Made by a program: the position numbers and the translations under genes
Shown: positions 1-35,719 of the stretch, piece by piece
How the letters are laid out: each line of letters begins with the position of its first letter
Position numbering within the stretch: position 1 is the stretch's first letter
Source of the DNA: Xestospongia bergquistia
Lineage: Eukaryota > Porifera > Demospongiae > Haplosclerida > Petrosiidae
Assembly (NCBI GenBank): GCA_963965975.1
Contig: OZ014422.1
Coordinates: forward strand, 4,735,155 to 4,799,154
Length of the DNA stretch: 64,000 bases
Reading direction: 5' to 3'
The notes under the pieces: model-generated
The model's database searches: none
What the model saw: the letters and a program-made list of their open reading frames with translations, nothing else
Told to the model about the DNA's origin: nothing

Positions 1-3000
1 TATTAACAGTTTAGTAAGTTGGTTTGCATTATCACTCTAAAGTCTTTAAATTAAAGAGTTTAGAACGTTTAGACTATTGAGTGAAGTTTATAATGTAAAG
101 AGCTCAGTCTAAAGGACTCTATGGGACTAACTAAATAAACTGTTATTAACTGTTTAGCAAGTTCGCTTGCATTAACACTCTAAAGTCTTTACTTTAAAAA
201 CGTTAGAAGGTTTAGACTATTGAGTGAAGTTTATAAAGTAAACAGCTCAGTTTAAAGGACTCTATGAAACTAAATAAATAAACTGCTTTTAACAGTTTAG
301 TAAGTTGGTTTGCATTAACACTCTAAAGTCTTCAATTTAAAGACTTTAGAATGTTTGGACTATTGAGTGAAGTTTTGAAAGTAAACAGCTCTGTCTAAAG
401 GACTCTATGGGACTAACTAAATAAACCGCTATTAACAGTTTAGTAAGTTGGTTTGCATTAACACTCTAAAGTCTTTAATTTAAAGAATTTAGAAGGTTTA
501 GAGTACTGAGTAAATTTTATAATGTAAACAGGTCAGTCTAAAGGACTCTATGGGACTAACTAAATAAACTGCTATTAACAGTTTAGTAAGTTGGTTTGCA
601 TTAACACTCTAAAGTCTTTAATTTAAAGACTTTAGAATGTTTAGACTATTGAGTGAAGTTTATAAAGTAAACAGCTCAGTGTAAAGGACTCTATGAAACT
701 AAATAAATAAAGTGCTATTAACAGTTTATTAAGTTGGTTTGCATTAACACTCTAAGTCTTTAAATTAAAGACTTTAGAAGGTTTAGACTATTGAGTGAAT
801 TTTATAAAGTAAACAGCTCAGTCTAAAGGACTCTATGAAGCTAAATAAATAAACTGCTATTAACAGTTTAGTAAGTTGGTTTGCATTAACACTCTAAAGT
901 CTTCAATTTAAAGACTTTAGAATGTTTGGACTATTGAGTGAAGTTTTGAAAGTAAACTGCTCTGTCTAAAGGACTCTATGGGACTAACTATGTAAACCGC
1001 TATTAACAGTTTAGTAAGTTTGTTTGCATTAACACTCTAAAGTCTTTAATTTAAAGAATTTAGAAGGTTTAGAGTACTGAGTAAACTTTATAATGTAAAC
1101 AGGTCAGTCTAAAGGACTCTATGGGACTAACTAAATAAACTGCTATTAACAGTTTAGTAAGTTGGTATGCATTAACACTCTAAAGTCTTTAATTTAAAGA
1201 CTTTAGAATGTTTAGACTATTGAGTGAAGTTTATAAAGTAAACAGCTCAGTCTGAAGGACTCTATGAAACTAAATAAATAAAGTGCTATTAACAGTTTAT
1301 TAAGTTGGTTTGCATTAACACTCTAAGTCTTTAAATTACAGACTTTAGAAGGTTTAGACTATTGAGTGATTTTTATAAAGTAAACAGCTCAGTCTAAAGG
1401 ACTCTGTGGGACTAACTAAGTAAACTGCTATTAACAGTTTAGTAAGTTTGTTTGCATTAACACTCTAAAGTCTTTAAACTTAAGAGTTTAGAAGGTTTAA
1501 ACTATTGAGTGAAGTTTATAAAGTAAAGAGCTTAGTTTGAAGGACTCTATGGGACTAAGTAAATAAACTGTTATTAACAGTTTAGTAAGTTGGTTTGCAT
1601 TAACACTCCAAAGTCTTTAATTTAAAGAATTTAGAAGGTTTAGACTATTAAGTGAAGTTTATAAAGAAAATAGCTCAGTCTAAAGGACTGTGTGGGACAA
1701 ACTAAATAAACTGCTATTAAAAGTTTAGTAAGATGTTTTGCATTAACTCTCTAAAGTCTTTAAATTAAAGTGTTTAGAAGGTTTAGACTATTGAGTAAGT
1801 TTTATAATGTAAACAGGTCAGTCTAAAGGACTCTATGGGACTAACTAAATAAACTGTTATTAACAGTTTAGCAAGTTGGTTTGCATTAACACTCTAAAGT
1901 CTTTAATTTAAAGAATTTAGAGGGTTTAGAGTACTGAGTAAATCTTATAAAGTAAACTGCTCATACTAAAGGACTCTATGGGACTAACTAAATAAACTGC
2001 TATTAACAGTTTAGTAAGTTGGTTTGCATTATCACTCTAAAGTCTTTAAATTAAAGAGTTTAGAAGGTTTAGACTATTGAGTGAAGTTTATTATGTAAAC
2101 AGCTCAGTCTAAAGGACTCTATGGGACTAACTAAATAAACTGTCATTAACAGTTTAGCAAGTTCGTTTGCATTAACACTCTAAAGTCTTTAATTTAAAAA
2201 CGTTAGAAGGTTTAGACTATTGAGTGAAGTTTATAAAGTAAACAGCTCAGTTTAAAGGACTCTATGAAACTAAATAAATAAAATGCTTTTAACAGTTTAG
2301 TAAGTTGGTTTGCATTAACACTCTAAAGTCTTCAATTTAAAGACTTTAGAAGGTTTAGACTATTGACTGAAGTTTTTAAAGTAAACAGCTCTGTCTAAAG
2401 GACTCTATGGGACTAACTAAATAAACTGCTATTAACAGTTTAGTAAGTTGGTTTGCATTAACACTCTAAGGTCTTTAATTTAAAGAATTTAGAAGGTTTA
2501 GAGAACTGAGTAAATTTTATAAAGTAAACAGGTCAGTCTAAAGGACTCTATGGGACTAACTAAATAAACTGCTATTAACAGTTTAGTAAGTTGGTTTGCA
2601 TTAACACTCTAAAGTCTTTAATTTAAAGACTTTGGAATGTTTAGACTATTGAGTGAAGTTTATAAAGTAAACAGCTCAGTCTAAAGGACTCTATGAAACT
2701 AAATAAATAAAGTGCTATTAACAGTTTATTAAGTTGGTTTGCATTAACACTCTAAGTCTTTTAATTAAAGACTTTAGAAGGTTTAGACTATTGAGTGAAT
2801 TTTATAAAGTAAACAGCTCAGTCTAAAGGACTCTGTGGGACTAACTAAGTAAACTGCTATTAACAGTTTAGTAAGTTTGTTTGCATTAACACTCTAAGGT
2901 CTTTAATTTAAAGACTTTAGAAGGTTTAGACTATTGAGTAAATATTATGAAGTAAACTGCTCAATCTGAAGGACTCTATGGGAATAACTAACTAAACTGC

Positions 3001-6000
3001 TATTAATAGTTTAGTAAGTTTGTTTGCATTAACACTCTAAAGTCTTTAATTTAAAGAGTTTAGAAGGTTTAGACTATTGTGTAAAGTTTATAATGTAAAC
3101 AGCTCATTCTAAAGGACTCTATGAAGCTAAATAAATACACTACTATTTACAGTTTAGTAAGTTGGTTAGCTTTGACACTCTAAAATCATTAATTTAAAGA
3201 CTTTAGAAGGTTTAGACTTTTGAGTGAAGTTTATAAAGTAAACAGCTCAGTCTAAAAAACTCTATGGGACTAACTAAATAAACTGCTATTAACAGTTTAG
3301 TAAGTTGGTTTGCATTAACACTCCAAAGTCTTTAATTTAAAGACTTTAGAAGCTTTAGAATACTGAGTAATTATTATAAAGTAAACTGGTTAGTCTAAAG
3401 GACTCTATGGGACTAACTAAATAAACTGCTATTAAGAGTTTAGTAAGTTGGTTTGCATTAACACTCTAAAGTCTTTAATTTAAAGACTTTAGAAATTTGT
3501 CACTATTGAGTGAAGTTTATAAAGTAAAAAGCTCAGTCTAAAGGACTCTATGAAACTAAATAAATAAACTGGTATTAAAAGTTTAAGAAGTTAATTTGCA
3601 TTAACACTCTAAAGTCTTTAAATTAAAGAGTTTAGAAGGTTTAGACTGTTGAGTGAAGTTTATAAAGTAAAGAGCTTAGTCTAAAGGACTCTACGGACTA
3701 AGTAAATAAACTGTTATTAACAGTTTAGTAAATTGGTTTGCACTAACACTCTAAAGTCTTTAATTTAAAGACTTTATAAAATTTAGACTATTCAGTAAAT
3801 TTTATAAAGTAAACTGCTCATTCCAAAGGACTCTATGGGACTAACTAAATAAACTGCTATTAATAGTTTAGTAAGTTCGTTTGCATTAACACTCTAAAAT
3901 CTTTAAATTAAAGAGTTTAGAAGGTTTAGACTATTGAGTTAAGTTTATAATGTAAACAGCTTAGTCTAATGGACTCTATGGGAGTAACTAAATAAACTGT
4001 TACTAACAGATTAGGAAGTTGGTTTGCATTAACACTCTAAAGCCTTTAATTTAAAGACGTTAGAAGGTTTAGACTATTGAGTGAAGTTTATAAAGTAAAC
4101 AGTTCAGTCTAAAGGACTCTATGAAACTAAATAAATAAACTGCTTTTAGTAGTTTAGTAAATTGGTTTGCATTAACACTCTAATGTCATTAATTTAAAGA
4201 CTTTAGAATGTTTAGACTATTGAGTGAAGTTTATAAAGTAAATAGCTCAGTCTAAAGGACTCTATGGGACTAACTAAATACTGCTATTAACAGTTTAGTA
4301 AGTTGGTTTGCATTAACACTCTAAAGTCTTTAATTTAAAGACTTTAGAAGGTTTAGACTATTGAGTGAAGTTTATAAAGTAAACTGCTTAGTCTAAAGGA
4401 CTCTATGGGACTAATAAAATAAACTGCTATTAACAGTTTATTAAGTTGGATTGCGTTAACAATCTAAAGTCTTTAATTTAAAGACTTTAGAAGGTTTAGA
4501 CTATTGAGTAAAGTTTATAAAGTAAACAGCTCAGTCTAAAGGACTCTATGAAATTAACTAAATAAACTGCTATTAACAGTTTATTAAGTTGGTTTGCATT
4601 AACCCTCTAAAGTCTTTAATTTAAAGAGTTTAGAATGTTTGGACTGTTGACTAAATTTTATAAAGTAAAGAGCTTAGTCAAAAGAACTCTGTGGGTCTAA
4701 GTAAATAAAATTTTATTAACAGTTTAGTAAGTTTGTTTGCATTGACACTCTAAAGTCTTTAATTTAAAGACTTTAGAAGGTTTAGACTATTGAGTAAATT
4801 TTATAAAGTATAATGCTCGTTCTAAAGGACTCTATGGGACTAACTAAATAAACTGCTATTAACAGTTTAGTAAGTTGATTTGCATTAACACTCTAAAGTC
4901 TTTAAATTAAAGAGTTTAGAAGGTTTAGACTATTGAGTAAGTTTATAATGTAAACAGCTCAGTGTAAAGGACTCTATGTGACTAACTAAATAAACTGTTA
5001 TTAACAGTTTAGCAAGTTGGTTTGCATTAACACTTTAAACTCTTTAATTTGAAGACTTTAGAAGGTTTAGACTATTGAGTAAATTTTATAAAGTAAACAT
5101 CTCAGTCTAAAGGACTCTATGGGACTAATGAAATAAACTGCTATTAACAGTTTAGTAAGTTGTTTTGCATTAACACTCTAAAGTCTTTAAATTAAAGTGT
5201 TTAGAAGGTTTAGACTATTGAGTGAAGTTTATAAAGTAAAGAGCTTAGTCTAAAGGACTCTACGGGACTAACTAAATAAACTGTTATTAACAGTTTAGTA
5301 AATTGGTTATCATTAACACTCTAAAGTTTTTAATTTAAAGACTTTAGAAAATTTAGACTATTGAGTAAATTTTATAAAGTAAACTGCTCATTCTAAAGGA
5401 CTCTATGGGACTAACTAAATAAACTGCTATTAACAGTTTAGTAAGTTGGTTTGCATTAACACTCTAAAATCTTTAAATTATAGAGTTTAGAAGGTTTAGA
5501 CTATTGAGTGAATTTTATAATGTAAACAGCTCAGTGTAATGGACTCTATGGGAGTTACTAAATAAACTGTTATTAACAGATTAGCAAGTTGGTTTGCATT
5601 AACACTCTAAAGTCTTTAATTTAAAGACGTTAGAAGGTGTAGACTATTGAGTGAAGTTTATAAAGTAAACAGTTCAGTCTAAAGGACTCTATGAAACTAA
5701 ATAAATAAACTGCTTTTAATAGTTTAGTAAATTGGTTTGCATTAACACTCTAATGTCTTTAATTTAAAGACTTTAGAAGGTTTAACCTATTGATTGAAGT
5801 TTATAAGGTAAGTAGCTCAGGCTAAATGACTCTATGGGACTAACTAAATAAACTGCTATTAACAGTTTAGTAAGTTGGTTTGCATTAACACTCTAGAGTC
5901 TTTAATTTAAAGACTTTAGAAGGTTTAGACTATTGATTGAAGTTTATAAAGTAAACTGCTTAGTTTAAAGGACTCTACGGGAGTAACTAAATAAACTGCT

Positions 6001-8230
6001 ATTAACAGTTTATTAAGTTGGTTTGCATTAACACTCTAAAGTCTTTAATTTAAAGACTTTAGAAGGTTTAGACTATTGAGTAAAGTTTATAAAGTAAACA
6101 GCTCAGTCTAAAGGACTCTATTAAATTAACTAAATAAACTGCTATTAACAGTTTATTAAGTTGGTTTGCATTAACACTCTAAAGTCTTTAATTTAAAGAG
6201 TTTAGAATGTTTGGACTGTTGAGTAAAGTTCATAAAGTAAACAGCTCAGTCTAAAGGACTCTAATGGACTAATGAAATATACTGCTATTCTCAGTTTAGT
6301 AAGTGGTTTTGCATTAACACTCTAAAGTCTATGAAATAAAGTGTTTAGAAGATTTAAACTATTGAGTGAAGTTTATAAAGTAAAGAGCTTAGTCTAAAGG
6401 ACTCTGTCTGTCTAAGTAAATAAAATTTTATTAACAGTTTAGTAAGTTAGTTTGCATTAACACTCTAAAGTCTTTAATTTAAAGACTTTAGAAGGTTTAG
6501 ACTATTGAGTAAATTTTATAAAGTAAAATGCTTGTTCTAAAGGACTCTATGGGACTAACTAAATAAACTGCTATTAACAGTTTAGTAAGTTGGTTTGCAT
6601 TAACACTCTAAAGTCTTTAAATTAAAGAGTTTAGAAGGTTTAGACTATTGAGTAAGTTTATAATGTAAACAGCTCAGTCTAAAGGACTCTATGGGACTAA
6701 CTAAATAAACTGTTATTAACAGTTTAGCAAGTTGGTTTGCATTAACACTTTAAACTCTTTTGTTTGAAGACTTTAGAAGGTTTAGACTATTGAGTAAATT
6801 TTATAAAGTAAACTGCTCATTCTAAAGGACTCTATGGGACTAATTAAATAAACTGCTATTAACAGTTTAGTAAGTTGGTTTTCATTAACACTCTAAAGTC
6901 TTTAATTTAAAGACTTTAGAAGGTTTAGACTATTGAGTAAAGTATAGAAAGTAAACTGCTCAGTCTAATGGACTCTATGGGACTAACGAAATAAACTGCT
7001 ATTAACAGTTTAGTAAGTTGGTTTGCATTAAAACTCTAAAGTCTTTAATTTAAAGACTTTTGAAGGTTGTGACAATTGAGTGAAGTTTATAAAGTAAACA
7101 GCTCAGTCTAAAGGACTCTATGAAACTAAATAATTAAACTGCTATTAACAGTTTAGTAAGTTGGTCTGCATTAACACTCTAAAGTCTTTAATTTAAAGAC
7201 TTTAGAGGTTTAGACTATTGAGTAAATTTTATAAAGTAAACTGGTCAGTATAAAGGACTCTATGGGACTAACTAAACAAACTGCTATTAACAGTTTAGTA
7301 AGTTGGTTGCATTAACACTCTAAAGTCTTTAATTTAAATACTTTAGAAGGTTGTGTCTATTGAGTGAAGTTTATAAAGTAAACAGCTCAGTCCAAAGGAC
7401 TCTATTAAACAAAATACTTAAACTGTTATTAACAGTTTAGTAAGTTGGTTTGCATTAACACTGTAAAGTCTTTAATTTAAAGACTTTAGAAGGTTTAGAC
7501 TATTGAGTGAAGTTTATAAAGTAAACAGCTTAGTCTAAAGGACTCTATGGGACTAACTAAATAAACTGCTATTAACAGTTTATTAAGTTGGTTTACATTA
7601 GCACTCTAAAGTCTTTAATTTAAAGATTTTAGAAGGTTGTGACAATTGAGTGAAGTTTATAAAGTAAACAGCTCAGTCTAAAGGACTCTATGAAACTAAA
7701 TAATTAAACTGCTATTAACAGTTTAGTAAGTTGGTTTGCATTAACACACTAAAGTCTTCAATTTAAAGACTTTAGAGGTTTAGACTATTGAGTAAATTTT
7801 ATAAAGTAAACTGGTCAGTATAAAGGACTCTATGGGACTAACTAAATAAACTGCTATTAACAGTTTAGTAAGTTGGTTGCATTAACACTCTAAAGTGTTT
7901 AATTTAAAGACTTTAGAAGGTTGTGACTATTGAGTGAAGTTTATAAAGTAAACTGGTGAGTCCAAAGGACTCTATTAAACTAAATAAATAAACTGTTATT
8001 AACAGTTTAGTAAGTTGGTTTGCATTAAAACTCTAAAGTCTTTAATTTAAAGACTTTAGAAGGTTTAAAGTATTGAGTAAATTTTATAAAGTAAACTGCT
8101 CAGTCTAAAGGACTCCATGAGACTAATGAAATAAACTACTATTAACAGTTTAGTAAGTTGGTTTGCATTAACCCTCGAAAGTCTTTAATTTAAAGACTTT
8201 AGAAGGTTTAGACTATTGAGTGAAATTTAT
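1..8230 (+). repeat. Satellite zone A (GGACTCTATGGGAC subfamily)
   Basis: Monomers share the block AAAGGACTCTATGGGACTAA or its variant CTATGAAACTAAATAAATAA, and mostly read CAGCTCAGTCTAAAG before it. The repeating order of the two variants at the far left suggests a multi-monomer higher-order unit: the group at about 290-840 resembles that at about 840-1400 and again 2290-2850. The last monomers with GGACTCTAT lie near 7970 and a transitional GGACTCCATGAGAC sits near 8115. After that the block changes to GGGACTTAATGGG. Confidence 0.85.
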
Positions 8231-11200
8231 AAAGTAAACTAGTCAGTCTTAGGGACTTAATGGGACTATCTATATAAGCTGCTATTAACTGTTTAGTAAG
8301 TTGATTTCCAGTAACACTCTAAAGTCTTTAATTTAAAGACATTAAAAGGTTTACACTATTGAGTGAAGTTAATAAAGTAAACTTGTCAGTCTTAGGGACT
8401 TAATGGGACTAACTAAATAAACTGCTATTAACAGCTTAGTATGTTGGGTTGCAATAACACTCTAAAGTCTTTAATTTAAAGACTTTAGAGGGTTTAAACT
8501 ATTGAGTGAAATTTATTAAGTAAACTACTTACTCTAAGGGACTTAGTGGGACTAACTATACATGCTGCTATTAACTGTTTAATAAGTTGGTTTGCATTAA
8601 CCCTCTAAAGTCTTTAATTTAAAGACTTTAAAAGGTTTACACTATTGAGTGAAGTTAATAAAGTAAACTAGTCAGTCTTAGGGACTTAATGGGACTAACT
8701 AAATAAACTGCTATTAACAGCTTAGTAAGTTGGGTTGCAATAACACTCTAAAGTCTTTAATTTAAAGACTTTAGAGGGTTTAAACTATTGAGTGAAGTTT
8801 ATTAAGTAAACTACTTAGACAAAGGGACTTAGTGGGACTAACTATATAAGCTGCTATTAACAGTTTAGTAATTGGTTTGCAGTAACATTCTAAAGTCCTT
8901 AATTTAAAGACTTTAGTGGTTTTAAACTATTGAGTAAATTTTTTAAAGTAAACTACTCAGTCTAAAGGACTTAATGGGACTAAGTAAATAAACTGCTATT
9001 AACATTTTAGTAAGTTTGGTCTGCATTAACCCTCTAAAGTCTTTAATTTAAGGACTTTAGAAGGTTTAGACTATTGAGTGAAGTTTATAAAGTAAGCTTG
9101 TCAGACTTAGGGACTTAATGGGACTAACTATATATGCTGCTATTAACAGTTTAGTAAGTTGATTTGCATTAACGCTCTATAGTCTTTAATTTAATGACTT
9201 TAGAGGGTTTAAACTATGGAGTGAAATTTATAAAGTAAACTGCTAAGTCTAAAGGACTTAATGGGACTAAGTAAATAAACTGCTATTAACAGTTTAGTAA
9301 GTTGGTTTGCATTAACACTCTAAAGTCTTTAAATTAAAGACTTTAGAGGGTTTAAACTATTGAGTGAAGTTTATAAAGTAAACAACTTAGTCTAAAGGAC
9401 TTAGTCGGACTAACTATATCAGCTGCTATTAACAGTTTAGTAAGTTTGCTTGCATTAACGCTCTAAAGTCTTTAAATTAAAGACTCTAGAATTTTAGACT
9501 ATAAAGTTAATTTTATGAAGTAAACTACTCAGTCTTAAGGACTTAATGGGACTAACTAAATAAACTGCTATTAACATTTTAGTAAGTTTGTTTGCATTAA
9601 CACTCTAAAGTCTTCAATTAAAAGACTTTAGAGACTTTAAACTATTTAGTGAAGTTTATTAAGTAAACTACTTAGTCTAAGGGACTTAGTGGGACTAACT
9701 ATATATGCTGCTATTAACAGTTTTGTAAGTTGGTTTGCATTAACCCTCTAAAGTCTTTAATTTAAAGACTTTAGAAGGTTTAGACTACTGAGTGAAGTTT
9801 ATAAAGTAAACTGTTCAGACTTAGGGATTTAATGGAACTAACAATACAAGCCGCTATTAGTAGTTTAGTAAGTTGATTTGCATTAACGCTCTAAAGTCTT
9901 TAATTTAAAGTCTTTAGAGGGTTTAAACTATTGAGTGAAGTTTATTAAGTAAACTACTTAGTCTAAGGGACTTAGTGGGACTAACTATATATGCTGCTAT
10001 TAACAGTTTAGTAAGTTTGTTTGCATTAACCCTCTAAAGTCTTTAATTCAAAGACATTAGAAGGTTTAGACTATTGAGCGAAGTTTATCAAGTAAACTGC
10101 TCAGTCTAAAGACTTAATGGGACTAACTAAATAAACTGCTATTAACAGTTTAGAAGTTGGTTTGCATTAACACTCTAAAGTCTTTAATATAAAGTCATTA
10201 GAGAGTTTAAACTATTGAGTGAAGAGTATTAAGTAAACTACTTAGTCTAAGGGACTTAGTGGGACTAACTATATATTCTGCCATTAACAGTTTAGTAAGT
10301 TGGTTTGCATTAATCCTCTAAAGTCTTTAATTTAAAGACTTTAGAAGGTTTAGACTATTGAGTGATTTTTATAAAGTAAACTAGTCAGTTTTAGGGACAT
10401 AATGGGACTAACTATATAAGCTGCTATTAACAGTTTAGTCAGTTGATTTGCATTAACGCACTAAAGTCTTCAATTTAAGGCATTAGAGGATTTAAACTAT
10501 TGAGTGAAATTTATAAAATAACCTGATAAGTCTAAAGGACTTAAAGGGACTAACTAAGTAAACTGCTATTTACAGTTTAGTAAGTTGGTCTGCATTAACA
10601 CTCTAAAGTCTTTAAATTAAAGACTTTAGAGGGTTTAAACTATTGAGTGAAGTTTATAAAGTAAACTACTTAGTCTAAGGGACTTAGTGGGATTAACTAT
10701 ATAAGCTGCTATTAACAGTTTAGTAAGTTGGTTTGCAGTAACACTCTAAAGTCTTTAATTTAAAGACTTTAGAGGTTTTAAACTATTGATTGAAGTTTAT
10801 AAAGTAAACTACTTTACTAAAGGCCTTAGTCGGACTAACTATATCAGCTGCCATGAACAGTTTAGTAAGTTGGTTTGCATTAACGCTCTAAAGACTTTAA
10901 TTTAAAGACTCTAGAATTTTTAGACTATCAAGTGAATTTTATGAAGTAAACTACTCAGTCTAAAGGACTTAATGGGACGAACTAAATAAACTGCTATTAA
11001 CAGTTTTGTAAGTTTGTTTGCATTAACACTCTAAAGTCTTCAATTTAAAGATTTTAGAGGGTTTAAACTATTGAGTGAAGTTTATTAAGTAAACTACTTA
11101 GTCTAAGGGACTTAGTGGGACTAACTATATATGCTGCTATTAACAGTTTAGTAAGTTGGTTTGCATTAACCCTCTAAAGTCTTTAATTTAAAGACTTTAG

Positions 11201-12100
11201 AAGGTTTAGACTATTGAGTGAAGTTTATAAAGTAAACTACTCAGACTTAGGGACTTAATGGGACTAACTATACAAGCAGGTAGTAACAGTTTAGTAAGTT
11301 GTTTAGCATTGACGCTCTAAAGTCTTTAATTTAAAGAGTCTAGAGGTTTTAAACTATTGAGTGAATTTTACTAAGTAAACTACTTAGTCTAAGGGACTTA
11401 GTGGGACTAACTATATATGCTGCTATTAACAGTTTAGTAAGTTGGTTTGCATTAACCCTCTAAAGTCTTTAATTTAAAGACTTTAGAAGGTTTAGACTAT
11501 TGAGTGAAGTTTATAAAGTAAACTACTCAGACTTATTGACTTAATGGGACTAACTATACAAGCAGGTAGTAACAGTTTAGTAAGTTGTTTAGCATTGACG
11601 GTCTAAAGTCTTTAATTTAAAGACTCTAGAGGTTTTAAACTATTGAGTGAATTTTACTAAGTAAACTACTTAGTCTAAGGGACTTAGTGGGACTAACTAT
11701 ATATGCTGCTATTAACAGTTTAGTAAGTTGATTTGCATTAACCATCTAAAGTCTTTAATTTAAAGACTTTAGAAGGTTTAGACTAATGAGTGAATTTTAT
11801 CTAGTAAACTGCTCAGTCTAAAGGACTTATTAGGCTAACTAAATAAACTGCAGTTAACAGTTTAGTAGGTTGGTTTGCATTAACCTCTAAAGTCTTTAAT
11901 TTAAAGACTTTAGAAGGTTTAGACTTTTGAGTGAAGTTTATAAAGTAAACTACTCAGATTTAGGGACTTAATGGGACTAACTATACAAGCAGCTAGTAAC
12001 AGTCTAGTAAGTTGTTTAGCATTGACGCTCTAAAGTCTTTAATTTAAAGACTCTAGAGGTTTTAAACTTTTGAGTGAATTTTACTAAGTAAACTACGCAG

Positions 12101-14478: not shown

Positions 14479-14790
14479 TTTTTAGACTATCAAGTTAATT
14501 TTATGAGGAAAACTACTCAGTCTAAAGGACTTAATGGGACTAACTAAATAAACTGCTGTTAACAGTTTAGTAGTTAGTTTGCATTAACACTCTAAAGACT
14601 TCAATTTAAAGACTTTAGTGGCTTTAAACTATTGAGTGAAGTTTCTTAACCAAACTACTTAGTCTAAGGGACTTAGTGGGACTAACTATATATGCTGCTA
14701 TTAACAGTTTAGTAAGTTGGTTTGCTTTAACCCTCTAGAGGTTTTAATTTAAAGACTTTAGAAGGTTTAGACTATTGAGTGAAGTCTCTA
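13141..14790. repeat. Long near-identical inverted repeat (foldback) in the satellite
   Basis: The forward stretch 14479-14790 is almost the exact reverse complement of 13141-13452, including rare private variants: TTTTATGAGGAAAACTACTC, CTGCTGTTAACAG, TAGTAGTTAGTTTGC and TTTCTTAACCAAAC. I see only two or three mismatches over about 310 bp, far fewer than between ordinary neighbouring monomers. The two arms, about 1.03 kb apart, therefore come from one recent inverted duplication rather than from independent monomers. Confidence 0.85.
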
Positions 14791-20700: not shown

Positions 20701-21989
20701 AACGGTTTAGTAAGTTGGTTTGCATTAACGCTGTAAAGTCTTTAATTTAAAGACCTTAGAAGGTTTAGACTATTGAGTGAAATTTATAAAGTAAACTGCT
20801 CAGTCTATAGGACTTAAAGGGACTAACTAAAGAAAGTGCTATTAACAGTTTAGTAATTTGGTTTGCATTAACACACTAAAGTCTGCAATTTAAAGACTTT
20901 AGAGGGTTTAAACTATTTAGTGAAGTTTATAAAGTAAAACTGCTCAATCTAAAGGACTTAATGGGACTAACTAAATAAACTGCTATTAACAGTTTAGTAA
21001 GTTGTTTTGTTTCAACACTCTAAAGTCTTTAATTTAAAGACTTTTGAAGGTTTAGACTATTGAGTGAAGTTTATAAAGTAAACTACTCAGTCTAAGGGAC
21101 TTAATGGGACTATCTACATAAGCTGCTATTAACAGTTTAGTAAGTTGGTTTGCATTAACGCTGTAAAGTCTTTAATTTAAAGACTTTAGAAGGTTTAGAC
21201 TATTGAGTGAAATTTATAAAGTAAACTCGTCAGTCTAAAGGACTTAAAGGGACTAACTAAATAAACTGCTATTAACAGTTTAGTAAGTTGATTTGCATTA
21301 ACGCTCTAATGTCTTTAATTTAAAGACTTTAGAGGGTTTAAACTATTCAGTGAAATTTATAAATTAAACTGCTAAGTCTAAAGGACATAATCGGACTAAC
21401 TAAATAAACTGCTATTAACAGTTTAGTAAGCTTGTTTGCATTAACACTCTAAAGTCTTTAAATTAAAGACTTTAGAGGGTTTAAACTATTGAGAGAATTT
21501 TATAAGGTTAAGTACTTAGTATAAGGGACTTAGTGGGACTAACTATATAAGCTGATATTAACAGTTTAGTAAGTTTGTTTGCAGTAACACTATAAAGCCT
21601 TAAATTTAAAGTCTTTAAAATGTTTAAACTACTGAGTGATTTTAAAAAGTAAACTACTTAGTCTAAGAGACTTAGTGGGACTAATTATATAAGCTTCTAT
21701 TAACAGTTTAGTAAGTTGGTTTGCATTTTAACGCTCCAAAGTCTTTAATTTAAAGACTCTAGAATGTTTAGATTATCAAGTGAACTTTATGAAGAAAACT
21801 ACTCAGTCTAAAGGACTTAATGGGACTAACTAAATAAACTGCTATTAACAGTTTAGTAAGTTTGTTTGCTTTAACACTCTAAAGTCTTTATTTTAAAGAC
21901 TTTAGAGGGTTTAAACTATTGAGTGAAGTTTATAAAGTAAATTACTTAGTCTAAGGGACTTAGTGGGACTAACTATATATGCTGCTATT

Positions 21990-24350
21990 AATAGTTTAGT
22001 AAGTTGGTTTGCATTAACCCTCTAAAGTCTTTAATTTAAAGACTTTAGAAGGTTTAGACTATTGAGTGTATTTTATAAAGTAAACTAGTCATTTTTAGGG
22101 ATTTAATGGGACTAACTATATAAGCTGCTATTAACAGTTTAGTAAGTTGATTTGCATTAACGCTCTAAAGTATTTAAATTAAAGAGTTTAGAGTGTTTAA
22201 ACTATTGAGTGAAATTTATAAAGTAAACTGCCAAGTCTAAAGGACTTAACGGGACTAACTAAATAAACTACTATTAACAGTTTAGTAAGTTGATTTGCGT
22301 TAACCCTCTAAAATCTTTAAATTAAAGACTTTAGAGGGTTTAAACTATTGAGTGAAGTTTATAAAGTAAACTACTTAGTCTAAGGGACTTAGTGGGACTA
22401 ACTAAATAAGCTGCTATTAACAATTTAGTAAGTTGGTTTGCAGTAACACTCTAAAGTCTTTAATTTAAAGACTTTAGAGGATTAAAACTATTGATTGAAG
22501 TTTATAAAGTAAACTACTTAGTCTAAAGGCCTTAGTGGGACTAAATATATAAGCTGCTATTAAGAGTTTAGTAAGTTGGTTTGCATTAACGCTCTAAAGT
22601 CTTTAATTTAAAGACTCTAGAATATTTAGACTATCAAATGAATTTTATGAAGAAAACTACTCAGACTAAAGGACTTAATGGGAATAACTAAATTAACTGC
22701 TATTAACAGTTTAGTAAGTTTGTTTGCATTAACACTCTAAAGTCTTTAATTTAAAGACTTTAGAGGGTTTAAACTATTGAGTGACGTTTATTAAGTAAAC
22801 TACTTAGTCTAAGGGATTTAGTGGGACTAACTATATATGCTGCTATTAAAAGTTTAGTAAGTTGGTTTGCATTAACCCTCTAAAGTCTTTAATTTAAAGA
22901 CTTTAGAAGGTTTAGACTATTCAGTTAAGTTTATAAAGTAAACTACTCAGACTTAGGGACTTAATGGGACTAACTATACAAGCCGCTATTAATAGTTTAG
23001 TAAGTCGATTTGCATTAACGCTCTAAAGTCTTTAACTTAAAGACAGTAGAGGGTTTAAACTATTGAGTGAAGTTTATTAAGTAAACTACTTAGTCTAAGG
23101 GACTTAGTGGGACTAACTATATATGCTGCCATTAACAGTTCAGTAAGTTTGTTTGCATTAACCCTCTAAAGTCTTTAATTCAAAGACTTTAGATGGTTTA
23201 GACTATTGCGCGAAGTTTATCTAGTAAACTGCTCAGTCTAAAGGAATTAATGGGACTAACTAAATAAACTGGTATTAAAAGTTTAATAAGTTGGTTTGCA
23301 TTCATATTCTAAAGTCTTTAATTTAAAGACATTAGAGAGTTTAAACTATTGAGTGAAATTTATTAAGTAAGCTACTTAGTCTAAGGGACTTAGTGGGACT
23401 AACTATATATGCTGCTATTAACAGTTTAGTAAGTTGGTTTGCATTAACCCTCTAAAGTCTTTAATTTAAAGACTTTAGAAGGTTTAGACTATTGAGTGTA
23501 TTTTATAAAGTAAACTAGTCATTTTTAGGGATTTAATGGGACTAACTATATAAGCTGCTATTAACAGTTTAGTAAGTTGATTTGCATTAACGCTCTAAAG
23601 TATTTAAATTAAAGAGTTTAGAGTGTTTAAACTATTGAGTGAAATTTATAAAGTAAACTGCCAAGTCTAAAGGACTTAACGGGACTAACTAAATAAACTA
23701 CTATTAACAGTTTTGTAAGTTGATTTGCGTTAACCCTCTAAAATCTTTAAATTAAAGACTTTAGAGGGTTTAAACTATTGAGTGAAGTTTATAAAGTAAA
23801 CTACTTAGTCTAAGGGACTTAGTGGGACTAACTAAATAAGCTGCTATTAACAATTTAGTAAGTTGGTTTGCAGTAACACTCTAAAGTCTTTAATTTAAAG
23901 ACTTTAGAGGATTAAAACTATTGATTGAAGTTTATAAAGTAAACTACTTAGTCTAAAGGCCTTAGTGGGACTAAATATATAAGCTGCTATTAAGAGTTTA
24001 GTAAGTTGGTTTGCATTAACGCTCTAAAGTCTTTAATGTAAAGACTCTAGAATATTTAGACTATCAAATGAATTTTATGAAGAAAACTACTCAGACTAAA
24101 GGACTTAATGGGAATAACTAAATTAACTGCTATTAACAGTTTAGTAAGTTTGTTTGCATTAACACTCTAAAGTCTTTAATTTAAAGACTTTAGAGGGTTT
24201 AAACTATTGAGTGACGTTTATTAAGTAAACTACTTAGTCTAAGGGATTTAGTGGGACTAACTATATATGCTGCTATTAAAAGTTTAGTAAGTTGGTTTGC
24301 ATTAACCCTCTAAAGTCTTTAATTTAAAGACTTTAGAAGGTTTAGACTAT
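21990..24350 (+). repeat. 1430-bp higher-order unit, tandemly duplicated
   Basis: The sequence from about 21990 repeats almost exactly from about 23420. ATTGAGTGTATTTTATAAAG occurs at 22061 and again at 23491, a shift of 1430 bp, or ten monomers of 143 bp. Private variants such as AGTCATTTTTAGGGATTTAA, TAAACTGCCAAGTC and GTTGATTTGCGTTAACCC are present in both copies. Similarity falls off near 22935/24365, where single-base differences increase. Confidence 0.85.
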
Positions 24351-25630
24351 TGAGTGAAGTTTATAAAGTAAACTACTCAGACTTAGGGACTTAATGGGAC
24401 TAACTATACAAGCTGCTATTAATAGTTTAGTAAGTTGATTTGCATAATGCTCTAAAGTCTTTAATTTAAAGACTTAAGAGGGTTTAAAATATTGAGTAAA
24501 GTTTATTAAGTAAACTACTTAGTCTAAAGGCCTTATTGGGACTAACTATATATGCTGCTATTAATAGTTTAGTAAGATGGTTTGCATTAACCCTCTAAGG
24601 TCTTTAATTCAAAGACTTTAGAAGGTTTAGACTATTGAGCGAAGTTTATCTAGTAAACTGCTCAGTCTAAAGGACTTAATGGGACTAACTAAATAAACTG
24701 CTATTAACAGTTTAGTAAGTTGGTTTGCATTAACACTCTAAAGTCTTTAATTTAAAAACATTAGAGAGTATAAACTATTGAGTGAATTTTATTAAGTAAA
24801 CTACTTAGTCTAATGGACTTAGTGGGACTAACTATATATCCTGCTATTAACAGTTTAGTACGTTGGTTTGCATTAGGCCTCTAAAGTCTTTAATGTAAAG
24901 ACTTTAGAAGGTTTAGACTAATGAGTGAAGTTTATAAAGTAAACTAGTCAGTCTTAGGGACTTAATGGGACTAACTATATAAACTGCTATTAACAGTTTA
25001 GTAAGTTGTTTTGCATTAACGTTCTAAAGTCTTTAATTTAAAGAATTTAGAGGGTTTAAACTATTGAGTGAAATTTACAAAGTAAACTGCTAAGTCGAAA
25101 GGACTTAATGGGACTAACTAAATAAACTTCTATTAACAGTATAGTAAGTTGGTTTGCATTAACACTCTAAAGTCTTTAAATTAAAGGCTTTAGAGGGTTT
25201 AAACTATTGAGTGAAGTTTATAAAGTAAACTACTTAGTCTAAGGGACTTAGTGGGACTCACTATATTGCTGCTATTAACAGTTTAGCAAGATGGTTTGCA
25301 GTAACACTCTAAAGCCTTTAATTTAAAGACTTTAGAGGGTTTAAACTATTGAGTGAAGTTTATAAAGTAAACTACTTAGACTAAAGGCTTTAGTCGGTCT
25401 AACTATATCAGCTGCTATTAACAGTTTAGTAAGTTTGTTTGCATTAACGCTCTAAAGTCTTTAATTTAAAGACTTTAGAATTTTCAGAAACTCAAGTGAA
25501 TTTTATGAAGTAAACTACTCTGTCTAAAGGACTTAATGGGACTAATTAAATACACTGCTATTAGCAGTTTAGTAAGTTGGTTTGCATTAACACTCTAAAG
25601 TCTTCAATTTCAAGACTTTAGAGGGTAAAC

Positions 25631-28600
25631 AGCTCAGTCTAAAGTACTTACTGGGACTAACAAATTAAACTGCTATTTACAGCTTTATAAGTTGTTTTGC
25701 ATTAACACTCTAAAGTCTTTAATTTATAGACATTAGTAGGTTTACACTATTACGTGATGTTTATAAAGTAAACTGCTCTGTCTAAAGGAGTTATTGGGAC
25801 TAACTAAAAATAATGCAATTAACAGTTTAGTAACTTCGTTTGCATTAAGGTTTTAAAGTCTTTAATTTAAAGACTTTAGAAGGTATAGACAATTGAGTGA
25901 AGTTTATAAAGAAAACTGCTGAGTCTAAAGGACTTATTTGGACAAACAAAATAAACTGCTTTTAACAGTTTAGTAAGTTTGTTTGCATTAACGCTCTAAT
26001 GTTATTAATTTAAAAACTTTAGAAGGTTTAGACTATTGAGTGAATTTTATAAAGAAAACTGCTCAGTCTAAAGGACTTACTGGGACTAACTAAATAAAGT
26101 GCTATTAACAGTTTTGTAAGTTGGTTTGCATTAACGCTCTAAAGTCTTTAATTTAAAGACCTTAGAAGGTTTAAACTATTGAGAGAAGTTTATAAAGTAA
26201 ACTGCTCACTCTAAAGGACTTATTGGCACTAACTAAATAAAATGCAATCGACAGTTTAGTAAGTTGGTTTGCATTAAAGGTGTAAAGTCTTTAATTTAAA
26301 GACTTTAGAAGTTTTAGACTATTGATTGAAGTTTATAAAGTAAACTACTCAATCTAAAGTACTTATTGGGACTAAAAAAATAAACTGCTATTTACAGTTT
26401 AGTAAGTTGGTTTGCATTAACGCTTTAACTTTAATAATTTAAAGACTTCAGAAGGTTTAGACTATTGAGTGAAATTTATAAAGTAAACTGCTCAGTCTAA
26501 AGGACTTGATGGGACTAACTAAACAAAATGCAATTAACAGTTTAGTAAGTTGGTTTGCATTAAGGATCTAAAGTCTTCAATTTAAAGACTTTAGAAGGTT
26601 TAGACTATTGAGTGAAGTTTATAAAGTAAACTACTCAGTATAAAGGACTTATCGGGACTAACAAAATTAACTGCTATTTACAGTTTAGTAAGTTTGTTTG
26701 CATTAACGGTCTAAAGTTATTAATTTAAAGACTTTAGAAGCTTTAGAGTGTTGAGTGAAGTTTATAAATTAAACTGCACACTCTAAAGGACTTATTGGCA
26801 CTAACTAAATAAACTGCTATTAACAGTTTAGTAAGTTGGTTTGCATTAAGTGTGTAAAGTCTTTAATTTAAAGACTTTAGAAGGTTCAGACTATTGAGTG
26901 AAGTTTATAAAGTAAACAGCTCAGTCTAAAGTACTGACTGGGACTAACAAATTAAACTGCTATTTACAGTTTTATAAGTTGTTTTGCATTAACACTCTAA
27001 AGTCTTTAATTTATAGACATTAGTAGGTTTACACTATTACGTGATGTTTATAAAGTAAACTGCTCTGTCTAAAGGAGTTATTGGGACTAACTAAAAATAA
27101 TGCAATTAACAGTTTCGTAACTTTGTTTGCATAAAGGTTTTAAAGTCTTTAATTTAAAGACTTTAGAAGGTATAGACAATTGAGTGAAGTTTATTAAGAA
27201 AACTGCTGAGTCTAAAGGACTTATTGGGACAAACAAAATAAACTGCTTTTAACAGTTTAGTAAGTTTGTTTGCATTAACGCTCTAATGTTATTAATTTAA
27301 AAACTTTAGAAGGTTTAGACTATTGAGTGAATTTTATAAAGAAAACTGCTCAGTCTAAAGGACTTACTGGGACTAACAAAATAAACTGCTATTAACAGTT
27401 TAGTAAGTTGGTTTGCATTAAGTCTCTAAAGTCTTTAATTTAAAGACCTTAGAAGGTTTAAACTATTGAGTGAAGTTTATAAAGTAAACTGCTCACTCTA
27501 ATGGACTTATTGGCACTAACTAAATAAAATGCAATTAACAGTATGTAAGTTGGTTTGCATTATGGCTGTAATGTCTTTAATTTAAAGACTTTAGAAATAT
27601 TAGACTATTGAGTGAAGTTTATAAAGTAACTGCTCAGTCAAAAGGACTTATTGGGACTAACAAAATAAACTGCTATTTACAGTTTAGTAAGTTGGTTTGC
27701 ATTAATGGTCTAAAGTTATTAATTTAAAGACTTTAGAAGCTTTAGAGTATTGAGTGAAGTTTATAAATTAAACTGCACACTCTAAAGGACTCATTGGCAC
27801 TAACTAAATAAACTGCTATTAACAGTTTAGTAAGTTGGTTTGCATTAAGTGTGTAAAGTCTTTAATTTAAAGACTTTAGAAGGTTCAGACTATTGAGTGA
27901 AGTTTATAAAGTAAACAGCTCAGTCTAAAGTACTTACTGGGACTAACAAATTAAACTGCTATTTACAGTTTTATAAGTTGTTTTGCATTAACACTCTAAA
28001 GTCTTTAATTTATAGACATTAGTAGGTTTACACTATTACGTGATGTTTATAAAGTAAACTGCTCTGTCTAAAGGAGTTATTGGGACTAACTAAAAATAAT
28101 GCAATTAACAGTTTCGTAACTTCGTTTGCATAAAGGTTTTAAAGTCTTTAATTTAAAGACTTTAGAAGGTATAGACAATTGAGTGAAGTTTATAAAGAAA
28201 ACTGCTGAGTCTAAAGGACTTATTTGGACAAACAACATAAACTGCTATTAACAGTCTAGTAAGTTTGTTTGCATTAATGCTCTAATGTTATTAATTTAAA
28301 AACTTTAGAAGGTTTAGACTATTGAGTGAATTTGATAAAGAAAACTGCTCAGTCTAAAGGACTTACTGGGACTAACAAAATAAACTGCTATTAACAGTTT
28401 AGTAAGTTGGTTTGCATTAACTCTCTAAAGTCTTTAATTTAAAGACCTTAGAAGGTTTAAACTATTGAGTGAAGTTTTTAAAGTAAACTGCTCACTCTAA
28501 AGGACTTATTGGCACTAACTAAATAAAATGCAATCAACAGTTTAGTAAGTTGGTTTGCATTAAAGGTGTAAAGTCTTAAATTTAAAGACTTTAGAAGTTT

Positions 28601-31600
28601 TAGACTATTGATTGAAGTTTATAAAGTAAACTACTGATTCTAAAGTACTTACAGGGACTAACAAAATAAACTGCTATTTACAGTTTAGTAAGTTTGTTTG
28701 CATTAACGCTCTAAAGTCTTTAATTTAAAGACTAGAAGGTTTAGACTATTGAGTGAAGTTTATAAAGTAAACTGCTCACTCTAAAGGACTTATTGGCACT
28801 AACTAAATAAACTGCAATTAACAGTTTAGTAAGTTGGTTTGCATTATTGGTGTAAAGTCTTTAATTTAAAGACTTTAGAAATATTAGACTATTGAGTGAA
28901 GTTTATAAAGTAAGTGCTCAGTCAAAAGGACTTATTGGGACTAACAAAATAAACTGCTATTAACATTTTAGTAAGTTGGTTTGCGTTAACGGTTTAAGGT
29001 TATTAATTTAAAGACTTTAGAAGCTTTAGACTATTGAGTGAAGTTTATTAAGTAAACTGCTCAATCTAAAGGACTTATTGGCACTAACTAAATAAACTGC
29101 AATTAACAGTTTATTAAGTTGGTTTGCATTAAGGGTGTAAAGTCTTTAATATAAAGACTTTAGAAGGTTCAGACTATTGAGTGAAGTTTATGAAGTAAAC
29201 TACTCAGTCTAAAGGACTTATTGGGACTAACAAAATAAACTGTTATTTACAGTTTAGTAAGTTGGTTTTCATTAATGGTCTAAAGTTATTAATTTAAAGA
29301 CTTTAGAAGCTTTAGACTATTGAGTGAATTTTATAAATTAAACTGCTCACTCTAAAGGACTTATTGGCACTAACTAAATAAACTGCAATTAACAGTTTAG
29401 TAAGTTGGTTTGCATTAAGGGTGTAAAGTCTTTAATTTAAAGACTTTAGAAGGTTAAGACTACTGAGTGAAGTTAATAAAGTAAACTACTCACTCTAAAG
29501 AACTTGCTGGGACTAACAATTTAAACTGCTACTTACAGTTTTATAAGTTGTTTTGCATTAACACTCTAAAGTTTTTAATTTATAGACTCTAGTAGGTTTA
29601 CACTATTGAGTGTATTTTATAAAATAAACTGTTCAGTCTAAAGGACTTAATGGGAGTAACTATATAAACTGCTATTAACAGTTTAGTAAGTTGTGTTGCT
29701 TTAACGCTCTAAAGTTTTTAATTTGAAGACTTTAGAAGGTTTAGACTATTGAGTGATGTTTGTAAAGTAAACTGCTCACTCTAAAGGACTTATTGTACTA
29801 ACTAAATAAACTGCAAATAACAGTTTAGTAACTTGATTTGCATTAAGGGTCTAAAGTCTTTAATTTAAAGACTTTAGAAGGTTTAGAATATTGAGTGAAG
29901 TTTATAAAGTAAACTGCTCAGTCTAAAGGACTTAATGGGACTAACTCAATAAACTGCAATTAACAGTTTAGTAAGTTTGTTTGCATTAACTCTTTAAAGT
30001 CTTTAATTTAAAGACTTTAGAAGGTTTAGACTATTGAGTGAAGTTTATAAAGTAAACTACTCAGTCTAAAGGACTTATTGGCACTAACTAAATAAACTGC
30101 AATTAACAGTTTAGTAAGTTGGTTTGCTTTAAAGGTGTAAAGTCTTTAATTTATAGACTTTACTAGGTTTACACTATTGCGTGAAGTTTATAAAGTAAAC
30201 TGCTCAGTCTAGAGGAGTTATTGGGACTAACTAAATAAACTGCAATTAACAGTTTAGTAAGTTGGTTTGCATTAAAGCTCTAAAGTCTACAATTTAAAGA
30301 CATTAGAACTTTAGACTATTGAGTGAAGTTTACAAAGTAAACTGCTCAGTCTAAAGGACTTAATGGGACTAACTAAATAAACTGCAATTAAAGTTTAGTA
30401 AGTTTGTTTGCATTAACGCTCTAAAGTCTTTAATTTAGAGACTCTAGAAGGTTTAGACTATTGAGTGAATTTTATAAACTAAACTGCTCAGTCCAAAGGA
30501 CTTAATAGGACTAAATATATAAACTGCTATTAACAGTTTACTAAGTTGGGTTGCATTAACGCTCTAAAGTCGTTAATTTAAAGACTTTAGAAGGTTTAGA
30601 CTATTGAGTGTATTTTATAAAATAAACTGCTCAGTCTAAAGGACTTAATGGGAGTAACTATATACACTGCTATTAACAGTTTAGTAAGTTGGGTTGCATT
30701 AATGCTCTAAAGTTTTTAATTTGAAGACTTTAGAAGGTTTAGACTATTGAGTGAAGTTTATAAAGTAAACTGCTCAGTTTAAAGGACTTATTGGGACTAA
30801 CTAAATAAACTGCAATTAACAGTTTAGTAAGTTGGTTTACATTAACGCTTTAAAGCTATTAATTTAAAGACTTTAGAAGGTTTAGACTATTGAGTGAAGT
30901 TTATAAAGTAAACTGCTCACTCCAAAGGACTTATTGGTACTAACTAAATAAACTGCAATTAACAGTTTAGTAACTTGTTTTGCATTAAGGGTCTAAAGTC
31001 TTTAATTTAAAGAGTTTAGAAGGTTTAGAATATTGAGTGAAGTTTATAAAGAAAACTGCTAAGTCTAAAGGACTTATTGGGACATACAAAATAAACTGCT
31101 ATTAACAGTTTAGTAAGTTTGTTTGCATTAACTCTCTAAAGTTATTAATTTAAAGACTTTAGAAGGTTTAGACTATTGAGTGAAGTTTATAAAGTAAACT
31201 GCTTTGTCTAAAGGACTTAATGGGACTAACTAAATAAACTGCAATTAACAGTTTAGTAAGTTGGTTTGGATTAACGCTCTAAAGTCTTTAATTTAAAGAC
31301 TTTAGAAGGTTTAGACTATTTAGTGAAGTTATAAAGTAAACTGCTCACTGTAAAGGACTTAATGGGACTAACTAAATAAACTGCAATTAACAGTTTAGTA
31401 TTTTGGTTTGCTTTAAGGGTGTAAAGTCTTTAATTTAAAGACTTTAGAAGTTTTAGACTATTCAGTGAAGTTTATAAAGTAAACTGCTCAGTCTAAAGTA
31501 CTTACTGGGACTATCAAAATAAACTGTTATTGACTGTTTAGTAAGTTTGTTTGCATTAACGCTTTAAAGTTATTAATTTAAAGACTTTAGAAGCTTTAGA

Positions 31601-32373
31601 CTATTGAGTGAAGTTTATAAATTAAACTGCACCCTCTAAAGGACTTATTGGCACTAACTAAATAAACTGCTATTAACAGTTTAGTAAATTGGTTTGCATT
31701 AAGTTTGTAAAGTCTTTAATTTAAAGACTTTAGAAGGTTCAGACTATTGAGTGAAGTTTATAAAGTAAACTGCTCAGTCTAAAGTACTGACTGGGACTAA
31801 CAAATTAAACTGCTATTTACAGTTTTATAAGTTGTTTTGCATTAACACTCTAAAGTCTTTAATTTATAGACATTAGTAGTTTTACACTAATGCGTGAAGT
31901 TTATAAAGTAAACTGCTCAGTCTAAAGGAGTTATTGGGGCTAACTAAAAATAATGCAATTAACAGTTTAGTAACTTGGTTTGCATTAAGGGTCTAAAGTC
32001 TTTAATTTAAAGACTTTAGAAGGTTTAGACTATTGAGTGAAGTTTATAAAGAAAACTGCTCAGTCTAAAGGACTTACTGGGACTAACTAAATAAACTGCT
32101 ATTAACAGTTTAGTAAGTTGGTTTGCATTAGCGATTTAAAGTCTTTAATTTAAAGACCTTAGAATGTTTAAACTATTGAGTGAAGTTTATAAAGTAAACT
32201 GCTCAGTCTGAAGGACTTATTGGCACTAACTAAATAAACTGCAATTAACAGTTTAGTAAGTTGGTTTGCATTAAATGTGTAAAGTCTTTAATTTAAAGAC
32301 TTTAGAAGGTTCAGACTATTGAGTGAAGTTTATAAAGTAACCTGCTCAGTATAAAGTACTGACTGGGACTAAT
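25631..32373 (+). repeat. Satellite zone C (GGACTTATTGGGACTAACAA subfamily)
   Basis: Monomers here read GGACTTATTGGGACTAACAA or GGACTTATTGGCACTAACTA and carry AAACTGCAATTAACAG instead of AAACTGCTATTAACAG. A distinctive monomer pair (block TACTTACTGGGACTAAC or TACTGACTGGGACTAAC, then TTTATAGACATTAGTAGG and ATTACGTGATG or a close variant) recurs near 25640, 26925, 27920 and 31780. The first three copies are about 1290 and 1000 bp apart, close to nine and seven monomers. This marks higher-order units of varying length. Confidence 0.85.
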
Positions 32374-32375
32374 AT

Positions 32376-32600
32376 TGAGGATCCAGGAAAGAAGCGATCC
32401 ATACTGCTGACTGTATATGGACCATCCACGTACCAGCTTCTCCTGCAGTCAGCCAGTCCTGCAGACAAAACGTATATCCGACGAACAACCTTGAACAATC
32501 ATTTCAGTCCTGCTCCTTCTGCCATTGTCCAACGTTTTAAATTTAACATGTTTCTTCATTTGAAGATATTTCTTGCTAAACTTATTTCTGAACTAATGTG
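32376..32600 (+). mobile_element. Ty3/Gypsy-type gag fragment (fossil)
   Basis: Immediately right of the satellite edge, the plus strand encodes a short stretch with residues resembling the Gag region of Ty3/Gypsy-like retroelements (GPSTYQLL, then NNHFSPAPSAIVQRFKFN). Only a few tens of codons of similarity remain. No LTR, protease or polymerase is visible, so this is a small remnant of a broken element. Age cannot be estimated without relatives. The family call rests on motif resemblance only. Confidence 0.6.
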
Positions 32601-32836: not shown

Positions 32837-33101
32837 ATCGGCCAACAATAGTCCACGTTTTGTGCACCACTACTGTTTAGAATAGAACACAAGCATATTA
32901 ATGAATATAAATATCCTCTGCTAGCATTGGAAGTATTATTTCTTATGAAAATTGTACATAGCATAATATGTGTACTTGCAGTTTAACTTTTTTAAAATCA
33001 CTAGAAAATCTAAATTTGTCCAACATAATTATTGCCAAGATAATAACCATACAATAATATATATCAGCTAATTCGACACAATGCTACCAAGTATAAGTAC
33101 A

Positions 33102-35608: not shown

Positions 35609-35719
35609 AATGATTACAATGACAGAGATACCGTGACTCAGTACTGTACCGTATTAAACAAACGATGCTCTTATTACAGGTAACTTACTCAAAGTCACGT
35701 GTGCTGACCTTGGGCTGTT
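35609..35719. promoter_or_regulatory. Bidirectional promoter, PH gene / INTS1
   Basis: Only 111 bp separate the two divergent start codons, so both 5'UTRs and core promoters must lie in or very near this interval unless unseen upstream exons exist. It contains the E-box CACGTG at 35696-35701 (in context GTCACGTG, the type bound by USF/MYC/MiT factors) and an AP-1-type TGACTCA at 35634-35640. No TATA box is evident at a typical distance. Site function is inferred from sequence alone. Confidence 0.6.

What the first reader, a model, noticed from the sequence alone, without database searches (positions are those of the whole stretch)
1..32373. A 32-kb satellite with a nucleosome-sized monomer and no match I can name
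About half the window is one uninterrupted tandem array of a ~143-bp AT-rich monomer continuing past the left edge. Its length, homogeneity and lack of any open frame are typical of centromeric or pericentromeric satellites. The family is not one I recognise.
Basis: partly seen in the sequence, partly recalled or inferred. Interest (0 to 1): 0.72.

Follow-up and report, generated by a model that had tools for sequence, protein, structure and literature searches.

The report
Likely sponge centromere satellite DNA
Half the window is the edge of a long repeated-DNA block whose 143-letter unit turns up at an inner site on each of the 15 chromosomes of what is probably a sponge, so it is very probably centromere DNA, although binding by centromere proteins has not been tested.

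Summary
The array is real: 143-bp monomers fill window 1-32372. It is not one-directional: 12101-14482 is inverted. It is the right edge of a 0.56-0.58 Mb block on chromosome C12 of a 146.5-Mb, 15-chromosome genome. The family was seen on 15 of 15 chromosomes, one interior cluster each in the (capped) listings; rough total 33,000-40,000 monomers, 3-4% of the assembly. The consensus folds into three hairpin dyads covering most of the unit (z -7.5; array windows -2.6, flank 0.0), has no CpG, and the array has no CENP-B box. The genome encodes a divergent H3 with cenH3 hallmarks. Best reading: the CENP-A-carrying centromere satellite (0.75); pericentromere-only is the main rival; occupancy is untested. 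Beyond the first report: six 800-bp samples 116-138 kb apart on C5 are 99.5-100% identical, and two markers on C7 recur four times, 33,056-33,078 bp apart, at periods of 126-185 kb. This is recent large-scale amplification or an assembly artefact; C12 does not show it. One satellite fold-back with 16-kb arms was found. Four library searches gave no paper on sponge centromere satellites.

The parts
1..12103 (+). 143-bp satellite, forward block (85 monomer hits); continues left beyond the window
12101..14482 (-). 143-bp satellite, inverted block (18 monomer hits)
14470..14849 (.). zone of short orientation switches between the inverted and forward blocks
14877..32372 (+). 143-bp satellite, forward block (125 monomer hits) ending in a sharp array edge
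   Evidence: edge read
609..635 (+). example of the 27-bp near-perfect palindrome (13-bp arms, 1-base centre) that recurs in the monomers
   Evidence: sequence; consensus dyads
32374..32562 (+). gag-like 63-aa open stretch right at the array edge, probably a retrotransposon remnant; the resemblance is recalled, Pfam gives no match

Best explanation
The array is the right edge of the centromeric satellite block of one chromosome of a probable haplosclerid sponge; the same 143-bp family forms an interior block on every chromosome. Shown: array structure, presence on 15 of 15 chromosomes, strong predicted dyad (hairpin) structure of the monomer, recent in-register duplications, orientation switches, and a cenH3-like histone gene elsewhere in the genome. 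Inferred: the satellite carries the CENP-A nucleosomes of regional centromeres; as no CENP-B box is present, the dense short dyads, which could extrude as hairpins or cruciforms under torsion, are the DNA feature that favours CENP-A loading; the arrays are kept alike by unequal exchange or a similar copying process, which duplicates blocks from about 1 kb up to perhaps 100-200 kb.
For: One interior cluster on each of 15 chromosomes in the listings (lengths). On C1 the first 26-mer copy is at 18.352 Mb and only 1 of the first 100 listed 15-mer copies lies outside the cluster. Consensus fold z -7.5 against 500 dinucleotide shuffles; array windows mean z -2.62 (n=113), flank 0.00 (n=110); inverted repeats 133 in the array against 5-9 in five shuffles, 1 in the flank against 0-4. 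Block copies on C12 at 96-99% identity with shifts near multiples of 143. Divergent H3 at C7:7990076-7990429 with FC in place of FQ, loop 1 three residues longer and a Trp in it; best solved-structure match S. pombe Cnp1, 2.6e-27. Dyad enrichment at centromeres of several species is reported (PMC9070824, passages).
Against: No chromatin or cytological data. Ordinary H3.3 scores almost as well as Cnp1 against the cenH3 candidate (1.1e-26) and no start codon or N-terminus was found for it. CENP-C_C search negative (exon by exon, so weak). Hairpins are predictions; the D. melanogaster, human, ape and mouse centromeres lack such dyads (PMC9070824, passages). No clear 10-bp WW periodicity in the array. 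Listings are capped, so further copies outside the clusters are not excluded.
Confidence: 0.75

Rival explanations
1. Pericentromeric satellite only: it forms heterochromatin beside each centromere while CENP-A sits on another sequence, for instance the non-satellite blocks embedded in the arrays or DNA missing from the assembly.
For: Same chromosomal distribution would be expected. Non-satellite blocks are embedded at C12:4.32 and C5:4.60 Mb, and one of them recurs in arrays of C5, C7 and C15. In D. melanogaster the CENP-A islands are retroelement-rich within satellite (PMC9070824, passages).
Against: Gene-bearing DNA begins about 5.5 kb from the array edge (INTS1), so there is no broad pericentromere on this side. 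No rival tandem family was seen in the sampled stretches, but the genome was not scanned for one.
Confidence: 0.17
2. Selfish satellite without centromere role that merely accumulates in low-recombination interior regions.
For: Satellites can spread without function (general knowledge); block duplications and interchromosomal sharing are frequent.
Against: Presence at a single interior cluster on 15 of 15 chromosomes is hard to get by chance accumulation.
Confidence: 0.06
3. For the macro-units only: the 110-230 kb near-identical units are an assembly artefact, that is, repeated graph paths, haplotype copies or several genotypes laid end to end.
For: Four of six C5 samples are 100% identical over 800 bp. 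The X. muta note says the contig order in a repetitive region of its chromosome 2 is unknown (PMC12398682, passage). Marker positions were picked by hand from capped lists, without a null model. Only one of six C13 sample pairs is near-identical at fixed register, and C12 shows no such units.
Against: Four to six copies per chromosome exceed two haplotypes; on C7 the period varies (185,308; 126,325; 129,201 bp) while the inner marker spacing stays at 33,056-33,078 bp; C5 copies fall in two groups with 0.4-0.5% difference.
Confidence: 0.5

Closest known systems
Centromeric satellites rich in short dyad symmetries and without CENP-B box (e.g. African green monkey; proposal of Kasinathan and Henikoff, as described in PMC9070824, passages)
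   Same: AT-rich tandem monomers, enriched predicted hairpins, no CENP-B box
   Different: Sequence is unrelated as far as I can name it (no satellite library was on hand); CENP-A binding not shown here
Tribolium madens TmSat1/TmSat2 (peri)centromeric satellites with macro-dyad symmetries (PMC13081366, passages)
   Same: Dyads inside the monomer and orientation switches in the arrays; one fold-back with arms of at least 16.2 kb
   Different: Only 1 of 4 junctions tested is symmetric; one satellite family rather than two intermingled; 3-4% of the assembly rather than 38%
Human alpha satellite (recalled)
   Same: Interior arrays on every chromosome, block duplication in register, monomer of nucleosome scale
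   Different: No CENP-B box; no short fixed higher-order unit on C12; candidate units on other chromosomes are 110-230 kb

Membership tests
Centromeric satellite | Long tandem array without coding frames | tested here: met
Centromeric satellite | Present at an interior site on every chromosome | tested here: met
   15 of 15 chromosome-sized contigs (lengths)
Centromeric satellite | Confined to that site on each chromosome | tested here: inconclusive
   Held for all listed places but lists are capped: first 100 of 6,693, 100 of 125, first 100 of 18,745 with 1 outside
Centromeric satellite | Occupied by CENP-A (cenH3) nucleosomes, at the primary constriction | not testable with these tools
   No ChIP or FISH data; a cenH3 candidate gene exists
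Alpha-satellite-like, CENP-B-binding satellites | CENP-B box | tested here: not met
   Best 6 of 9 core positions in the window array, 7 of 9 once in 200 kb of C12 (motif recalled)
Dyad-rich centromere DNA | Excess of short inverted repeats and predicted secondary structure over shuffles | tested here: met
Macro-dyad satellite arrays (Tribolium type) | Neighbouring subarrays in opposite orientation forming symmetric multi-kb palindromes | tested here: inconclusive
   Both orientations on 7 of 15 chromosomes in listed or sampled places; symmetric at 1 of 4 junctions
Subtelomeric satellite | Location at chromosome ends | tested here: not met
   Clusters are interior; no satellite in the first 400 bases of the 20 contigs read, though 8 of those starts read N
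Structured-RNA gene array (rDNA, 5S, tRNA) | Rfam match | tested here: not met
   0 matches at gathering score in the window

The most novel reading that the evidence does not exclude
Centromeres of this sponge are built, on several chromosomes, as a few near-identical tandem macro-units of about 110-230 kb, each made of a hairpin-covered 143-bp satellite with embedded non-satellite blocks at nearly fixed offsets, and in places folded back as multi-kb palindromes. That would be a centromere architecture far coarser than the few-kb higher-order repeats recalled for human alpha satellite, in an early-branching animal lineage, with DNA shape rather than a CENP-B box as the shared signal.
Probability: 0.4. 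Interest if true: 0.75.

Novelty: new member of a known kind. Interest (0 to 1): 0.52.

Why it matters
Four searches of the held library gave no paper on sponge centromere satellites, so the centromere DNA of this phylum looks little described in open-access print. A satellite seen on all 15 chromosomes together with a cenH3 candidate makes sponge centromeres directly testable, and gives an outgroup for asking whether dyad-rich, CENP-B-free satellites are an old animal arrangement. Fold-back satellite arrays are said to be documented only in Tribolium (PMC13081366, passage). If the 110-230 kb units are real they show amplification of centromere DNA at an unusual scale.

Tried and rejected
Short regular higher-order repeat: TRF scores best at 429 bp, but shift identities show no fixed unit and recent copies on C12 are irregular multiples of about 143 bp. 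Rejected for the C12 parts read.

Macro-units on C12: no dominant shift above 45 kb in the 200 kb held, and the best genome matches to window 1001-1600 are 93% (the window's own copy was not among the rows listed). So C12, in the parts read, does not show the 110-230 kb pattern.

Nucleosome phasing from sequence: no clear 10-bp WW peak; the nucleosome argument rests on length alone. The TG+CA expectation printed is wrong by a factor and not used.

Species: 15 chromosomes and an 18.99-kb mitochondrion match the X. muta note, but its chromosome 1 is 35.36 Mb against 28.17 Mb here, so it is not that assembly; paper search found no other match. The SSU rRNA family search gave no answer twice. The 26-mer has no exact match in genome contigs or viral contigs.

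CENP-C domain: no match, which an exon-by-exon search cannot turn into absence.

L064 first looked like a broken transposase; that was the wrong frame. Another frame is open for 199 aa and matches PF13843.

C2: satellite at 12.80 and 12.83 Mb but at none of 7 points from 13.0 to 14.8 Mb; the 99% piggyBac-like copy at C2:13274251 is therefore not shown to lie in an array.

Rows picked by hand: I used 4 of 9 C7, 6 of 16 C5, 5 of 12 C13 and 5 of 9 C4 places of the 50-mer, namely those that recur at long spacing, and likewise chosen places; there is no null model for the spacing. The sixth C5 unit has no copy of the embedded 47-mer.

Full report
THE OBSERVATION. The window is C12:4735155-4799154 of a 146.46-Mb assembly in 21 contigs. 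TRF and a profile scan confirm a 143-bp array from 1 to 32372 with a sharp right edge. It is not uninterrupted in orientation: 12101-14482 is inverted, with short switches to 14877. The 211 full monomers average 91% identity to their consensus and 84% to each other. No frame of 120 aa or more lies in the array; Rfam has no match in the window.

EXTENT ON C12. A 200-kb stretch to the left (4440001-4640000) is 98.6% satellite with two more orientation switches. Of 12 further C12 points, three (4.10, 4.15, 4.19 Mb) are not satellite, eight are, and 4.32 Mb is an insert that encodes part of a piggyBac-type transposase (PF13843, 4.5e-51). The block thus runs from 4.19/4.21 to 4.7675 Mb of a 6.995-Mb chromosome. 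TTAA, the piggyBac target (recalled), is three times denser in the array than in the flank (32.1 against 9.6 per kb).

GENOME DISTRIBUTION. Fifteen contigs are chromosome-sized (5.4-28.2 Mb); the other six are 19-98 kb, one of 18,997 bp. Query 30001-30400 lists hits on 12 chromosomes; a 50-mer adds C4, C9 and C13 (100 of 125 hits listed). Listed places form one interior cluster per chromosome. Sampled points agree on C1 (18.45 and 18.60 Mb yes; 18.34, 18.80, 19.00 no), C8 and C9. On C1 the first 26-mer is at 18.352 Mb, and 1 of the first 100 listed 15-mers lies outside the cluster. Whole-genome counts: 6,693 (26-mer, control 0) and 18,745 (15-mer, control 2). With 0.47-0.56 copies per monomer in pooled samples (single samples 0 to 1.1), that is very roughly 33,000-40,000 monomers, 4.8-5.7 Mb, 3.3-3.9% of the assembly.

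MONOMER STRUCTURE. The consensus has 29.6% GC and no CpG. As single-stranded DNA it folds into three stem-loops over most of the unit, -29.2 kcal/mol, z -7.5 against 500 dinucleotide shuffles. Sampled 143-nt windows average z -2.62 in the array (n=113, every second window) and 0.00 in the flank (n=110). Inverted repeats with arms of 9 or more and loops up to 12 number 133 in the array (five shuffles: 5-9) and 1 in the flank (shuffles 0-4). There is no CENP-B box. This is potential, not proof of cruciforms in cells.

TURNOVER. Within 200 kb of C12, blocks are repeated at shifts of 1.3-13 kb near multiples of 143 bp with 96-99% identity. 357 of 1,332 full monomers there have an identical twin, median distance to the next 5.2 kb. 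Unequal exchange or a similar in-register process explains this.

MACRO-UNITS. On C5, six 800-bp samples 116-138 kb apart are 99.5-100% identical, against 84% for random monomers. A non-satellite 47-mer recurs five times on C5, 29.4-30.7 kb after the chosen marker, four times on C7, 33,056-33,078 bp after the marker at periods of 185, 126 and 129 kb, and twice on C15. Marker spacings of similar size occur on C4, C6, C13, C14 and C15 (chosen positions). Against a uniform picture: of four C13 samples one pair is 99.9% identical and the other five pairs 56-79% at fixed register; C12 does not show the pattern; markers were chosen by hand; artefact of assembly is not excluded.

ORIENTATION. Both strands occur on C2, C3, C8, C9, C10, C12 and C14 in listed or sampled places, 7 of 15. 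At C12:4461675 the two sides, read outward, align at 90.4% over 16.3 kb starting within 42 bases of the junction; this is the best-scoring register, the next being 89.4% over 15.0 kb, so it is a fold-back, with a 56-bp perfect inverted repeat at the junction by eye. The other three junctions tested do not stand out.

CENTROMERE PROTEINS. The histone family search gives 13 matches, of which 11 were read: two canonical H3 on C7, a two-part H3.3-like gene on C12, three H2B, three H2A-type pieces, and C7:7990076-7990429, a divergent H3 with FC in place of FQ, loop 1 three residues longer and a Trp in it. Its best solved-structure match is S. pombe Cnp1 (2.6e-27), with ordinary H3.3 close behind (1.1e-26). 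The hallmark rules are recalled; its N-terminus was not found. CENP-C_C gave no match.

FLANK. Right of the edge lie a 63-aa gag-like stretch (resemblance recalled, no Pfam match), INTS1 exons from 37.9 kb (PF12432, PF22929), and a probable CLEC16A gene at 55.9-63.0 kb (one stretch over Pfam's cut-off, one below it). Gene-bearing DNA starts about 5.5 kb from the array.

LITERATURE. Searches gave no paper on sponge centromere satellites in the held open-access library, which lacks most subscription journals. I saw the outline, abstract and passages of PMC12398682 (no 'centromer' or 'satellite' in its text), passages of PMC13081366 and of PMC9070824; others only as search listings.

VERDICT. A satellite family of a known kind, new as far as I could check, and very probably centromeric. 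The unusual parts are the dyad-covered monomer, the fold-back and above all the near-identical 110-230 kb units, which need long-read checks.

Noticed in passing
C5:4.57-5.19 Mb (L087-L092) and C7:4.75-5.22 Mb: Near-identical copies of satellite stretches and of an embedded 47-mer recur at 115-185 kb spacing: macro-duplications or assembly artefact.
   Followed up: partly
C12:4445451-4477900 (L017-L020): Satellite fold-back with arms of at least 16.2 kb at 90.4% identity and a short spacer.
   Followed up: partly
L083 (C7:7989950-7990550): Divergent H3 gene piece with cenH3 hallmarks, a candidate sponge CENP-A.
   Followed up: partly
L064 (C12:4320001-4320600): piggyBac-type transposase inside the array; 98-99% copies also at C10:2700434 and C4:4304682, within the array spans of those chromosomes, and at C2:13274251 and C6:8827348, not shown to be in arrays.
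   Followed up: partly
L073 (C5:4600001) and L076 (C5:5280001): A second repeat family: L073 begins and ends with a similar stretch about 570 bp apart and shares a stretch with the right flank of the C5 array (by eye).
   Followed up: no
window 37896-44711 (+) and 55907-63013 (-): INTS1 exons and a probable CLEC16A gene close to the array edge.
   Followed up: partly
window 56275-56444: Three copies of a 57-bp tandem repeat lying in frame in the CLEC16A-like open frame, giving a 19-aa repeat.
   Followed up: no
L049 (C14:1-400): Telomere-like start with a mixture of CCCTAA and CCCTAAA units, 54 CCCTAA in 400 bases.
   Followed up: no
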